A stretch of 38,463 nucleotides of DNA from Bacteroidota bacterium (GTDB lineage Bacteria > Bacteroidota > Ignavibacteria > UBA10030): the NCBI GenBank assembly GCA_026416125.1, contig JAOAFT010000021.1, forward strand, positions 1 to 38,463, read 5' to 3'. Shown here in pieces: positions 13,094-18,202 of this stretch (its first letter is position 1; the number at the start of each line of letters is the position of its first letter). The translations under genes were made by a program, and so were the position numbers. A model generated the notes under the pieces. The model searched no databases. It had not been told where the DNA came from and saw only the letters and a list, made by a program, of their open reading frames with translations.

Positions 13094-13903
13094 TTACACT
13101 CCATGAAAATAGCGTTTAATAAAGGTGCCAACGATCTCAGTAAAATGTTCTGGTTCTTCTAGGTTGCACATGTGAGCTGAATTCGAAAAAACATGGAACT
13201 CTGAATTAGGGATATTTTTGTGCATAGTTTCCATAACGCATGGTGGTGAAAATCGATCGTGGTTTCCTGCAATGAGTAACGTTGGTACTGTGATGGAGGG
13301 AAGGAACTCTGTTGTATCAGTACGAGCGGCTAATGCTAGTTGAACACCACAAAACCCGAGTAGAGGTGTATTGAGGATCATTGACCGAATTCGATCGATG
13401 ATATGCGGATTTGTAGTGAACGTTGTAGGAGCAAAAAGTTTTTGGATAAATTCATCAGCAAATGGGGTAAGTCCTTCGTGCTTTACTCGTAGGATTGTTT
13501 GTGCCCGCTGAATTTTTGCTTGATTATTATCAGCTTCACTCTTTGTGTTGCTGAGAATAAGTCCGGCAATACGTTCTGGGTAACGTTGGAATGTCCGTAG
13601 CGCAATGTACCCGCCCATGGAAAGTCCACAAAGAACTGCAGTTGCTATTTTGAGGTAGTCTAGGAGTGCAATAAGATCGTCAACAAAGAGTTCAATGGTA
13701 TACTGCCCATCACCTACAGCACTTTTTCCTAAGCCGCGAACATCGTATGTAACCATTGTTACTTTCGATGAAAGTGCAGAAACTTGTGGTTCCCACATTT
13801 CGCTGCTAAATGGGAAGCCGTGGATGAATACTAGTGGGGGAGTTCTATTCTCGTTTTCATATAGTGTGTAGTTGATCATTGTATTATTAATTGTTGCCAC
13901 CAT
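13094..13903 (-). CDS. Alpha/beta hydrolase (3-oxoadipate enol-lactonase-like)
   Basis: From the ATG at 13903 the protein has about 269 residues. This start has a perfect AAGGAG 9 bases upstream and begins right at the first beta-strand (M-V-A-T-I-N); a start at 14023 would add 40 residues that read through the upstream gene. Motifs are the oxyanion loop F-I-H-G-F-P-F, the nucleophile C-G-L-S-M-G-G-Y, the acid I-A-G-N-H-D-R-F-S-P and the histidine S-N-S-A-H-M-C-N-L-E-E-P. This is the classic PcaD/haloperoxidase-like fold. The substrate cannot be told; no aromatic-degradation genes are nearby, so true enol-lactonase function is doubtful. It overlaps the upstream glycosyltransferase gene by 17 bases, indicating coupled translation. 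It is cytoplasmic, with no signal peptide. Confidence 0.85.
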   Translation of the reverse strand: MVATINNTMINYTLYENENRTPPLVFIHGFPFSSEMWEPQVSALSSKVTMVTYDVRGLGKSAVGDGQYTIELFVDDLIALLDYLKIATAVLCGLSMGGYIALRTFQRYPERIAGLILSNTKSEADNNQAKIQRAQTILRVKHEGLTPFADEFIQKLFAPTTFTTNPHIIDRIRSMILNTPLLGFCGVQLALAARTDTTEFLPSITVPTLLIAGNHDRFSPPCVMETMHKNIPNSEFHVFSNSAHMCNLEEPEHFTEIVGTFIKRYFHGV

Positions 13904-15084: not shown

Positions 15085-16359
15085 CTAACGTTGGTTAATC
15101 GGGATATATGGTCGCTCATCGTACCCTACGTATACTTGTCGTGGGCGAGCGATTTTCTGCTCAGGGTCTGTGATGTGTTCATTCCATTGTGCGAGCCATC
15201 CAATCATTCGGCCAAGGGCAAAAAGTACGGTGAAAAAGTTTGTAGGAAATCCCATTGCTTGATAAATAAGGCCAGAGTAGAAGTCAACATTTGGGTAAAG
15301 GCGGCGTTTGATGAAGTACTCGTCTTCGAGAGCGATTTTTTCAAGTGCAAGTGCTATTTCTAATTTTGGGTTTTTGCCAGTGACTTCAAAAACCTCATAG
15401 GCAAGTTGTTTTATCACTCGCGCGCGTGGGTCGTAGTTTTTATAAACACGATGGCCAAATCCCATTAATCGACGTTTTCCTTCTTTTACTTCTTTTATAA
15501 ATGCAGGAACATTTTCGATTGTTCGGATTTCATCGAGCATCTTAAGAACCTCTTCATTAGCACCACCATGAAGTGGTCCCCAAAGGGCAGCTGTAGCACC
15601 AGCTGCTGCTGCGTATGGATTTGCAAGTGAACTTCCTATACAGCGCATGACATTGGTGCTACAGTTTTGTTCATGATCAGCATGGAGGATAAGAAGAACA
15701 CGCATTGCTCGTTCGAAAACGGGGTGTACAGTGGTTGTACCGAATGTCATTGCGAGAAAATTTCCTGAATAGGAGAGTTGGAGATTTGGTTCCTGGAAAG
15801 GTAAGCCTTTGGTGTGTCGAAAAATCATCGCACAGAGTGTAGGTGTGTGGCCCATTAATCGGTACACTTGTTTCATCCTGATTGTTGGATCGTGGATATT
15901 CTGTGATTCTGGATAGAGCGTTGATAATGCTCCGAGGAGACTCACAAGCATTCCCATGGGGTGGGATGATAAATCGAATCCTTTTAGAATTGTTGCAATA
16001 GACTCTGGGATGAAACATTCGCTCATAATGTTGCTTCGCCACTCGTCTAATTGATCTTTGGTTGGCAATTCGCCGTGAAAAATGAGATACGCAACTTCAA
16101 GAAACGAATGGGATTCTTCAGCTAATTGTTCTATAGGGTACCCACGGTAACGAAGAATGCCTTTATCACCGTCAATATAGGTAATCTTACTTTTCACGGA
16201 AGCGGTATTCATAAATGCGGGATCATATCCCATTATTCCAAAATCATCGTCATTCACCTTTATATTTCGAAGTTCCATTGTACGAATAGCACCATTTTCT
16301 ATTGGTATTGTGTACTGCTTTTGTGTACGTGAATCTGTGATTTGTAAAGAGTTTACCAT
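15085..16359 (-). CDS. gltA: Citrate synthase
   Basis: The protein has about 424 residues from the ATG at 16359. That start has AAGGAG about 10 bases upstream and is preferred over the ATG at 16392, which would add 11 residues. All core motifs of type II citrate synthase are present: I-L-R-Y-R-G-Y-P-I near residue 80, H-A-D-H-E-Q-N-C-S-T, G-P-L-H-G-G-A-N-E, the catalytic loop G-F-G-H-R-V-Y-K-N-Y-D-P-R, and the catalytic aspartate in N-V-D-F-Y-S-G. It condenses acetyl-CoA and oxaloacetate to citrate, the first step of the TCA cycle. There is no signal peptide. The length and the long C-terminal domain fit the bacterial hexameric class. It leads a three-gene - strand run; a promoter should lie in 16360-16500, but none matches well enough to mark. 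Confidence 0.96.
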   Translation of the reverse strand: MVNSLQITDSRTQKQYTIPIENGAIRTMELRNIKVNDDDFGIMGYDPAFMNTASVKSKITYIDGDKGILRYRGYPIEQLAEESHSFLEVAYLIFHGELPTKDQLDEWRSNIMSECFIPESIATILKGFDLSSHPMGMLVSLLGALSTLYPESQNIHDPTIRMKQVYRLMGHTPTLCAMIFRHTKGLPFQEPNLQLSYSGNFLAMTFGTTTVHPVFERAMRVLLILHADHEQNCSTNVMRCIGSSLANPYAAAAGATAALWGPLHGGANEEVLKMLDEIRTIENVPAFIKEVKEGKRRLMGFGHRVYKNYDPRARVIKQLAYEVFEVTGKNPKLEIALALEKIALEDEYFIKRRLYPNVDFYSGLIYQAMGFPTNFFTVLFALGRMIGWLAQWNEHITDPEQKIARPRQVYVGYDERPYIPINQR

Positions 16360-16503
16360 TGCAAACGATCTCCTTAAAATTATTTTGTTCATTTAGGAAA
16401 GCTATTTAATAATTAAGAATTTATTTCGCAAATCTCCACAAAAAAGATTATTGAATAAGTATCAGAATTTTTTCAGAAACTTTTTTTAACTCTATTTCGT
16501 TAT

Positions 16504-16511
16504 TATATTTG
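16504..16511 (+). promoter_or_regulatory. Possible TAnnTTTG-type -7 element before the small RNA
   Basis: TATATTTG at 16504-16511 fits the Bacteroidota -7 consensus TAnnTTTG exactly, with a T-run (16481-16487) at about the -33 distance. It sits just upstream of a strongly structured transcript that ends in a terminator. The other promoters in this window look sigma70-like, so this assignment is tentative. Confidence 0.4.
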
Positions 16512-16515
16512 ACAA

Positions 16516-16602
16516 GCGCCTACCGTCCCTCCTCCCTTAAAAATCGGTAGGTGTCCTCTTAGCCTCCCTGGCCCCGGCGCATAAATGTGCGTCGGGGTTT
16601 TT
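16516..16602 (+). ncRNA. Candidate small RNA or leader attenuator with C/U-rich loop
   Basis: Between the divergent citrate synthase and 5'-nucleotidase genes lies a compact structured segment of about 85 bases with no coding capacity. A 9-bp stem CGCCTACCG/CGGTAGGTG (16517-16525 with 16545-16553, one G-U pair) encloses a 19-base loop containing TCCCTCCTCCC. A second C/U-rich stretch (about 16554-16570, including GCCTCCCTGG) follows, then a strong terminator. The loop is complementary to the purine-rich AAGGAG ribosome sites used by genes here. This suggests either a trans-acting small RNA that covers ribosome sites, or a 5' leader that attenuates the 5'-nucleotidase gene starting at 16697. 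I do not recognise a known RNA family. The structure is read directly from the sequence; the function is inference. Confidence 0.5.
16572..16602 (+). terminator. Strong Rho-independent terminator ending the small RNA
   Basis: CCCCGGCGCA (16572-16581) pairs with TGTGCGTCGGGG (paired bases 16588-16597) to give a 10-bp stem with one G-U pair and a short AT loop, followed by TTTTT at 16598-16602. No + strand protein gene ends upstream, since the neighbour on that side runs the other way. The terminator must therefore serve a non-coding transcript or act as an attenuator about 95 bases before the 5'-nucleotidase start. Confidence 0.85.
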
Positions 16603-16696
16603 GTTGTACCTCGCTTATAGTTCTTGGAGTTTGCTGAGGTAGATTTTGAAAGAGAAAAAAACTCAGTATCTTGGGCAAGAGCTGAAAGGAATGTGT

Positions 16697-18202
16697 ATGA
16701 ACAGAATTAATAAATGTATAATGGTAGTGTTGCTTGTAGGGAATATTTATTCCCATGCGCAACAACAGACAGTTGTGATTCTTCATACAAATGATTTGCA
16801 TGCAAGTTTTCTTCCCCGCGAAGCATTTTGGAGTAAGGGAAGCCCGAAACCATTCATTGGTGGATTTCGTGAGCTTCAAGCAGTTATCGATAGCATACGG
16901 AATATATATGAACTGTCGCTTCTCTTCGATGCTGGTGATGTTATGACAGGGAATCCTATAACTGAATACGTATACAAGGGCGCTGAAGGAGGAGCATTGT
17001 TTGAAATGATGAATATGATTGGGTACGATGGATGGACTGTTGGTAATCACGATTTCGATGTCTCGGTGAACAATTTACAGAAAATTACTTCAATTGTTCG
17101 TTTTCCAACGATAGTAGCGAATATTCGAGATAGTTCCGATGGTTTTCCTATTCACAATGTGGAATATATTCTTCTTACTAAAGGTGGACTTCGGATAGGT
17201 GTGTTCGGAATTATCTCCAAGGAGTTCTACGGGCTTGTTAATAAAAATAGTGCGAGGAATATAAAAATTCTCCACCCTATTGAAACCGCAAAACGTATTA
17301 CTACCATAATACGGCCTCACGTAGATATTCTCATCGCACTAACTCACCAGGGTATTGATGACGATGAACGCATGGCTCTTGAGGTGAAAGGAATTGACGT
17401 TATCATTGGTGGTCATTCTCATACTCGGTTACACAAGCCTCGTATCGTAAATGGAACTATTATTGCGCAAGCTGGTGCGAATTGTGAGTATTTAGGTGTT
17501 GTACTGCTACATCTTGAGAACAAAAAAATTGTTGGGAAAGATGGGAACCTTATTCCGCTATGGATACATTCGGATCGTCCAGAAACACAACTTTCAAAGT
17601 TTATTGATTCATTACACTTAATTGTTGAGCGAGACTATGCAACAGTACTTGGAGAACTTCGATCTCCATGGATTCGAGGACGGGGTGGTGAGAGTGGAGT
17701 TGGGAATTATATTTCTGATGCACAACGAGAAGCGGCGGGCGCAGATGTTGCCTTTATGAATGACCATGGGATTCGGCAAGATGTTGGTGTTGGACCTTTG
17801 ACAAAACGAAAATTGTTTGAAGTACTTCCTTTTCGAAATGTACTCTGTACATTTACTGTGAATGGGGAACAATTGAAAACAATAGTTGAGTACGTTATTC
17901 GTGAACGATCACCAATACAAACATCGGGGTTAAAAGTTGAATGGTCCAAACGATCGGACGGTTCTATTATATTTCATACGTTCATTGTGAATGGGAAGCC
18001 ATTGGATGAAAGAAAAGTATACCGAGTAGCAGCAAGTGATTATTTTATTGGTGAAGCCCGACGCTATATTGGAATAGAAGTATCTGACTACAGTATGCTC
18101 GATCTAACTGTGTTTGGTGCTGTTGCAGAGAAAATTCGCAGAGAAAAATTTATTGATTCACGGATAGAGGGGCGAATCTTAGAATCTAGAAGAACAGATT
18201 GA
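16697..18202 (+). CDS. UshA-type 5'-nucleotidase/metallophosphoesterase, exported
   Basis: From the ATG at 16697 the protein has 501 residues; AAAGGA lies 6 bases upstream and a signal peptide runs to about residue 21 (ending S-H-A-Q). Upstream in-frame starts (TTG 16646, ATG 16691) would place extra residues before the signal peptide. Metal-site motifs occur in order: H-T-N-D-L-H, D-A-G-D, G-N-H-D-F-D, T-H-Q-G and G-G-H-S-H. The C-terminal substrate domain contains G-N-Y-I-S-D-A and the stretch L-F-E-V-L-P-F-R-N. Enzymes of this family hydrolyse nucleotides or UDP-sugars in the periplasm and salvage nucleosides and phosphate. It is followed after 13 bases by a P-loop protein gene. A structured leader with a terminator precedes it and might control it. 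Confidence 0.9.
   Translation: MNRINKCIMVVLLVGNIYSHAQQQTVVILHTNDLHASFLPREAFWSKGSPKPFIGGFRELQAVIDSIRNIYELSLLFDAGDVMTGNPITEYVYKGAEGGALFEMMNMIGYDGWTVGNHDFDVSVNNLQKITSIVRFPTIVANIRDSSDGFPIHNVEYILLTKGGLRIGVFGIISKEFYGLVNKNSARNIKILHPIETAKRITTIIRPHVDILIALTHQGIDDDERMALEVKGIDVIIGGHSHTRLHKPRIVNGTIIAQAGANCEYLGVVLLHLENKKIVGKDGNLIPLWIHSDRPETQLSKFIDSLHLIVERDYATVLGELRSPWIRGRGGESGVGNYISDAQREAAGADVAFMNDHGIRQDVGVGPLTKRKLFEVLPFRNVLCTFTVNGEQLKTIVEYVIRERSPIQTSGLKVEWSKRSDGSIIFHTFIVNGKPLDERKVYRVAASDYFIGEARRYIGIEVSDYSMLDLTVFGAVAEKIRREKFIDSRIEGRILESRRTD

What the first reader, a model, noticed from the sequence alone, without database searches (positions are those of the whole stretch)
16504..16602. Possible novel small RNA or attenuator with an anti-ribosome-site loop
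The sequence shows a 9-bp stem with a 19-base loop rich in TCCC/CCTCC, a second C/U-rich stretch, and a strong terminator, all on the + strand between two divergent genes with no protein gene to terminate. C-rich unpaired loops that pair with AAGGAG-like ribosome sites are a known mode of action for regulatory RNAs in several bacteria. Genes in this window (for example at 13903 and 16359) do use AAGGAG. It could act in trans, or act in cis on the 5'-nucleotidase gene at 16697.
Basis: partly seen in the sequence, partly recalled or inferred. Interest (0 to 1): 0.62.

Follow-up and report, generated by a model that had tools for sequence, protein, structure and literature searches.

The report
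Stress-sigma-factor small RNA with C-rich loop
The segment is a real, conserved small-RNA gene that a group of little-studied Bacteroidota bacteria appear to switch on together with an efflux pump through an envelope-stress sigma factor, and it probably silences mRNAs by pairing its C-rich stretches with their ribosome-binding sites.

Summary
In detail: a 10-bp hairpin with a 19-nt CU-rich loop, an unpaired CCUCCC stretch and a strong terminator (fold z -5.7). It is a lineage-specific small-RNA family that no Rfam model matches. A covariance model finds it in 25 of 32 genomes of the same family (13 of 17 genera), 1 to 8 copies each. Outside the family only look-alike terminators turn up. The 5' hairpin changes almost completely in sequence but keeps pairing; the CCUCCC linker and terminator stem are nearly invariant. 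In 12 genomes it sits divergently beside citrate synthase (gltA), as in the window; the downstream gene varies, so cis control of the 5'-nucleotidase gene is unlikely.

New here is the promoter. 28 of 55 copies carry G(G/A)AAC-N16/17-YGTT (0.1 expected), an ECF-sigma signature. In the window's genome the strict form occurs at only three places: this RNA, an ECF sigma gene (with a zinc-finger anti-sigma), and a TolC-HlyD-ABC efflux operon. The genomes lack a detectable Hfq.

Best reading: the non-coding arm of an envelope-stress ECF regulon, acting in trans at ribosome-binding sites. RNA gene and promoter are well supported; the exact sigma is inferred; targets are unproven. Closest working analogues: FoxI/FoxJ, LhrC, sX13.

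The parts
16476..16501 (+). ECF-sigma-type promoter GAAAC-N17-CGTT of the small RNA
   Evidence: Same motif class upstream of 28 of 55 family copies, 0.1 expected by shuffling, 27 of 28 with a 17-nt spacer; strict form GAAACTTT-N13/14-CGTTWW occurs three times in the whole genome
16510..16603 (+). small RNA gene (5' end inferred to within a few bases)
   Evidence: Covariance model R1 match 61.9 bits, E 4e-16 per genome; note that the window sequence is one of the 31 used to build R1
16516..16554 (+). 5' hairpin: 10-bp stem, 19-nt CU-rich loop 16526-16544 (first candidate seed)
   Evidence: Fold; 5' hairpin with changed stem sequence in relatives
16555..16569 (+). unpaired linker with the nearly invariant RCCUCCCU motif (second candidate seed)
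   Evidence: Alignment A1
16570..16606 (+). intrinsic terminator, CCCCGGCG..CGTCGGGG stem and T tail
   Evidence: stem core invariant in 31 sequences
15085..16392 (-). citrate synthase gene (gltA), the conserved divergent neighbour (likely start codon at 16359; the mechanical ORF begins at 16392)
   Evidence: Pfam Citrate_synt E 1e-133; gltA-sRNA divergent arrangement within 1 kb in 12 genomes
16646..18202 (+). 5'-nucleotidase/metallophosphoesterase gene (likely start at 16697), non-conserved downstream neighbour, not judged part of the system
   Evidence: Pfam; downstream genes differ in relatives

Best explanation
A trans-acting small RNA of about 95 nt, transcribed from an ECF-sigma promoter as part of an envelope-stress regulon that also contains the sigma gene itself and a TolC-HlyD-ABC efflux operon. 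Its two CU-rich single-stranded regions (hairpin loop and RCCUCCCU linker) most likely pair with purine-rich Shine-Dalgarno regions and block translation of selected, probably envelope-related, mRNAs without Hfq. Shown computationally: the conserved gene, structure, terminator and ECF-type promoter. Inferred: which ECF sigma, the transcript ends, the pairing mode and the class of targets.
For: Fold z -5.7. Covariance-model matches with the CCUCCC motif in 25 of 32 family genomes, 1-8 copies each. Covariation: 28 cells changed on both sides against 8.3 in shuffles, all five stem-1 pairs with double changes, sliding the partner destroys it; native arms pair at -14.5 against -6.0 kcal/mol when arms are swapped between members. 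Promoter G(G/A)AAC-N16/17-YGTT in 28 of 55 copies, 0.1 expected. The ECF sigma found in all 32 genomes carries GAAAC-N16-CGTT upstream of its own gene in 23 of 30, 0.2 expected. Strict motif in own genome only at this RNA, that sigma gene and a TolC operon (OEP, HlyD, ABC_tran by Pfam); sigma and TolC recur with it in relatives. A zf-HC2 anti-sigma gene follows the sigma gene. No Hfq match in 32 genomes. C-rich seeds acting on mRNAs are established for sX13 (PMC3771888), LhrC (PMC13350326) and the sigma-E-dependent FoxI/FoxJ of Hfq-less Fusobacterium (PMC11005410).
Against: No transcript data. sRNA promoters have a 17-nt spacer while the sigma gene and TolC promoters have mostly 16, and most relatives' sRNA promoters read GGAAC rather than GAAAC, so another ECF sigma could drive some copies. 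GGGAGG-type ribosome sites are not enriched in the genome and no conserved target was found. Five relatives have 5' loops that are not C-rich (GGCAAG in G004, G011, G018; GAGGAG in G012, G023), so the loop seed is not universal.
Confidence: 0.62

Rival explanations
1. Cis-acting leader or attenuator of the downstream 5'-nucleotidase gene: the terminator would be conditionally read through into 16697.
For: The gene lies on the same strand about 95 nt beyond the terminator.
Against: Downstream neighbours differ in relatives (dipeptidyl peptidase, DapA-like protein) and are often on the opposite strand (pseudouridine synthase, convergent), while the RNA is retained. The terminator is strong and no alternative anti-terminator pairing was seen in the folds.
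Confidence: 0.05
2. The RNA acts through a protein: the invariant CCUCCC linker and invariant terminator stem are a binding or processing site (an RRM protein such as Bacteroides RbpB, or RNase), and the C-rich loop is incidental.
For: The terminator stem CCCCGRCG/CGYCGGGG is far more conserved than terminators need to be; five relatives have non-C-rich 5' loops but keep the linker; no Hfq; RbpB binds multicopy sRNAs in Bacteroides (PMC11697453).
Against: Most loops are C-rich (UCCCC, UCCUACCU, UCCCUCCUCCC, CCCCUCCCC) in hairpins with unrelated stems, which fits base-pairing seeds. The two readings are compatible.
Confidence: 0.17
3. The same small RNA, but driven by a different ECF sigma or by a housekeeping promoter rather than by the sigma gene found on contig 76.
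For: 17-nt against 16-nt spacer and GGAAC against GAAAC in relatives; a TAnnTTTG-like box (TATATTTG, 16504-16511) resembles the Bacteroidota primary promoter (from memory); 16 paralogous copies elsewhere use TTGAC-N17-19-TANNNT.
Against: In the window's own genome the RNA promoter is of the same strict class as that of the sigma gene, with only three hits in the genome, and G003's copy has it too. Of the five own-genome sigma genes whose upstream was inspected only this one carries the motif (the sixth was not fetched).
Confidence: 0.25
4. A chance or solitary terminator with no RNA function.
For: Outside the family many terminators with CCCCGGCG stems score 23-36 bits with the model.
Against: Within the family promoter, hairpin, linker and terminator occur together, often with gltA synteny, in 25 genomes.
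Confidence: 0.02

Closest known systems
FoxI and FoxJ sRNAs of Fusobacterium nucleatum (PMC11005410)
   Same: Driven by an envelope-stress sigma-E; C-stretch seeds (in a predicted loop in FoxJ, linear in FoxI); the host lacks Hfq and ProQ; proven repression of a porin mRNA.
   Different: Different phylum; FoxJ is about 156 nt; no homology was tested; the targets of the present RNA are unknown, and it is multicopy in some genera with a second promoter class.
LhrC family of Listeria monocytogenes (PMC13350326)
   Same: Multicopy family; stem-loop A, single-stranded linker and terminator; CU-rich motifs in single-stranded regions; mostly acts at ribosome sites and without Hfq.
   Different: Firmicute; LhrC also has a CU-rich terminator loop, and its envelope-stress control is by a two-component system (from memory).
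sX13 of Xanthomonas (Rfam RF02232; PMC3771888)
   Same: C-rich loops, Hfq-independent, represses mRNAs with G-rich motifs near the start codon; sub-threshold Rfam similarity.
   Different: Three stem-loops, 115-position model; match 12.8 bits against a gathering score of 50.
sigma-E-dependent sRNAs MicA/RybB of enterobacteria (PMC1804206)
   Same: Non-coding arm of an ECF envelope-stress regulon.
   Different: Depend on Hfq and use linear seeds (from memory), no C-rich hairpin loop.
FopS/GibS sRNAs of Bacteroides (PMC11697453)
   Same: Multicopy, paralogous sRNA family in the same phylum, ends in a terminator.
   Different: Primary sigma promoters, single-stranded 5' region without the 5' hairpin; no Rfam match here.
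anti-hemB (RF02837) and ar14 (RF02344)
   Same: Weak sequence-structure resemblance in the Rfam scan at sub-threshold level.
   Different: 19.3 and 13.8 bits against gathering scores 49.5 and 58.8; proteobacterial.

Membership tests
Any Rfam 15 family | Score at or above the gathering threshold | tested here: not met
   No match in the whole window; best sub-threshold match anti-hemB 19.3 of 49.5 bits
New lineage-specific family defined here (model R1) | 5' hairpin, RCCUCCCU linker, CCCCGRCG-type terminator stem | tested here: met
ECF envelope-stress-dependent sRNAs (MicA/RybB, FoxI/FoxJ type) | ECF-type promoter shared with an autoregulated sigma gene | tested here: met
   spacer differs by one base
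ECF envelope-stress-dependent sRNAs (MicA/RybB, FoxI/FoxJ type) | Induction by the sigma factor in cells | not testable with these tools
   No transcriptome available
ECF envelope-stress-dependent sRNAs (MicA/RybB, FoxI/FoxJ type) | Represses mRNAs of outer-membrane or envelope proteins | tested here: inconclusive
   Complementarity search at ribosome sites gave no conserved target; outer-membrane protein genes were not surveyed systematically
C-rich-loop sRNAs acting at ribosome sites (sX13, LhrC type) | C-rich unpaired loop or linker | tested here: met
   five relatives lack the C-rich loop but keep the linker
C-rich-loop sRNAs acting at ribosome sites (sX13, LhrC type) | Base pairing with G-rich ribosome sites of targets | not testable with these tools
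   Needs mutational or ligation experiments
sX13 (RF02232) | Rfam gathering score | tested here: not met
   12.8 of 50 bits
Hfq-dependent sRNAs | Hfq encoded in the genome | tested here: not met
   0 of 32 genomes match Pfam PF17209, while 5 of 14 control genomes do

The most novel reading that the evidence does not exclude
A modular sRNA family with a fixed anti-Shine-Dalgarno-like linker and terminator but exchangeable 5' loops and exchangeable promoters (ECF sigma or housekeeping), so that one ribosome-site-pairing chassis is redeployed under different signals and with different loop seeds, including loops (GAGGAG) complementary to the family's own linker that could act as sponges, all without Hfq.
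Probability: 0.25. Interest if true: 0.72.

Novelty: new member of a known kind. Interest (0 to 1): 0.52.

Why it matters
It appears to be an undescribed sRNA family in a mostly uncultivated branch of Bacteroidota, tied by its promoter to a defined ECF sigma and efflux regulon. If confirmed, an envelope-stress sigma with a non-coding arm would have parallels in Proteobacteria, Fusobacteria and Bacteroidota, the latter two using C-rich seeds without Hfq. That makes it directly testable whether this circuit design arises repeatedly. The covariance model and the promoter motif give a ready handle for annotating these genomes.

Tried and rejected
Rfam at gathering and relaxed thresholds: no known family. 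Plain promoter motif GRAAC-N17-YGTT over the genome: not enriched (106 against 161 for the reversed control), so the loose motif alone proves nothing; only the stricter motif and its conserved placement do. Target search AGGGAGG-N3-10-ATG: 13 sites, fewer than the control. The best candidate, a STAS-domain gene with AGGGAGGAGG (10-bp match to the loop), is not conserved in 26 other genomes, so it is not proposed as a target. Weak model matches outside the family are only CCCCGGCG-type terminators without the CCTCCC motif. A pattern scan of genome contigs also returned unrelated actinobacterial and proteobacterial sequence, discarded by eye for lack of promoter, hairpin and T tail. The possibility that genomes without a model hit keep a divergent copy beside gltA was checked in G002, G005, G006, G013 and G014, plus G003 and G010 whose copies lie elsewhere: none there.

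Full report
Observation. The region reads as described. It folds into a 10-bp hairpin (16516-16525/16545-16554) with a 19-nt loop UCCCUCCUCCCUUAAAAAU, an unpaired linker ending in GCCUCCCU and a 13-bp terminator; MFE -38.9, shuffle mean -22.8, z -5.70. Neighbours are citrate synthase (minus strand) and a 5'-nucleotidase-like metallophosphoesterase (plus strand). No Rfam family reaches threshold; below threshold anti-hemB, ar14 and sX13 appear weakly.

Conservation. The segment is single-copy in its genome. BLAST in relatives hit mainly the linker plus terminator, yet upstream of those hits lay hairpins of different sequence and a common upstream motif. A model from 31 sequences (A1, R1) finds strong matches carrying CCTCCC in 25 of 32 genomes of the same family, 13 of 17 genera, with one to eight copies. 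The window itself is one of the 31, so its own score is by construction; the spread over genera is not. In 80 relatives and 296 genomes sampled across the phylum, matches outside the family are weak and are only terminators with a similar stem.

Structure. Stem 1 varies at every pair with double changes (5 of 5 pairs), and over the whole structure 28 cells are changed on both sides against 8.3 in shuffles; sliding the 3' partners by 1-3 columns drops paired cells from 94% to 33-52%. Swapping 3' arms between members drops mean arm pairing from -14.5 to -6.0 kcal/mol. Sixteen members folded one by one give hairpin, linker and terminator, z -2.7 to -6.6. The terminator core and CCUCCC are invariant in the 31 aligned sequences. 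Most loops are C-rich (UCCCC, UCCUACCU, CCCCUCCCC, UCCCUCCUCCC); exceptions are GGCAAG (G004, G011, G018) and GAGGAG (G012, G023).

Location. In 12 genomes of 9 genera the RNA lies divergently within 1 kb of gltA, as in the window (coordinates). On the other side the neighbour differs: pseudouridine synthase (convergent), prolyl-oligopeptidase-like, DapA-like, 5'-nucleotidase (names from reading the translated sequences). Genomes without a strong hit (G002, G005, G006, G013, G014) and two whose copies lie elsewhere (G003, G010) have no RNA beside gltA. This argues for an ancestral gene beside gltA and against a cis-acting leader.

Promoter and regulon. 28 of 55 copies have G(G/A)AAC-N16/17-YGTT upstream (0.1 expected), 27 with a 17-nt spacer; 16 further copies, mostly paralogues in one genus, have a TTGAC-type sigma-70 promoter instead (0.3 expected). 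In the window it is 16476-16501. An ECF sigma gene (196 aa; Sigma70_r2, Sigma70_r4_2) followed by a zf-HC2 anti-sigma gene lies on another contig. Its relatives occur in all 32 genomes; of the 30 best matches, 23 carry G(G/A)AAC-N16/17-YGTT upstream, nearly always as GAAAC-N16-CGTT, 0.2 expected, so the gene is probably autoregulated. The strict motif GAAACTTT-N13/14-CGTTWW occurs three times in the 2.4-Mb genome: at this RNA, at this sigma gene and at an OEP-HlyD-ABC (TolC/MacAB-like) operon. In relatives the same motif repeatedly precedes the sigma gene and TolC-like genes. The loose motif is not enriched genome-wide, so the claim rests on the strict motif and on conserved placement. Open point: 17-nt against 16-nt spacer. 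That the stress is an envelope stress is inferred from the TolC operon, the membrane-type anti-sigma and the small exported-looking protein in the sigma operon, not measured.

Mechanism. No Hfq is detectable in the 32 genomes. An RNA with CU-rich loop and linker, an ECF promoter and no Hfq is built like FoxI/FoxJ, LhrC and sX13, all shown experimentally to act on mRNAs, the last two at or near ribosome sites. I infer the same here. Direct support for targets is lacking: ribosome sites with AGGGAGG are few, and the best one (STAS-domain gene, 10-bp match) is not conserved.

Verdict. A real, conserved, apparently undescribed sRNA family, most likely the non-coding arm of an ECF envelope-stress regulon. 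As a kind of regulator it is known; as a family, host group and regulon it is new. A literature search in the open-access library found no description in this clade, which does not exclude one elsewhere.

Noticed in passing
L142, L134 (genomes G012, G023): In these relatives the 5' loop carries GAGGAG instead of a C-rich motif, complementary to the family's own CCUCCC linker; a kissing, pseudoknot or sponge interaction is possible.
   Followed up: no
G007, G020, G024, G026, G028, G030 and G003 loci (L042, L071, L159, L165-L169, L173-L179): Up to eight paralogous copies per genome, mostly with sigma-70-type promoters and a CUCCCCG loop; the same RNA body appears to have been put under a different promoter class.
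   Followed up: partly
L170 (G025:C138): Two copies about 3 kb apart keep linker and terminator but have no recognisable long 5' hairpin or ECF promoter; possibly decaying or differently built.
   Followed up: no
L295, L297, L301, L311: An amidohydrolase-like gene in several genera carries the same strict ECF promoter motif, suggesting another protein-coding branch of the regulon.
   Followed up: partly
L309:5113-5457 (contig 76 of the window's genome): A 114-aa protein with an N-terminal hydrophobic stretch follows the ECF sigma and anti-sigma genes; by eye it has an LTxDQ motif like CpxP/Spy-type periplasmic proteins; no Pfam or NCBIfam match above cut-off.
   Followed up: partly
L040:6048-6272 (G015:C121): Two copies of the small RNA in tandem about 135 nt apart; the second lacks the ECF promoter.
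   Followed up: no
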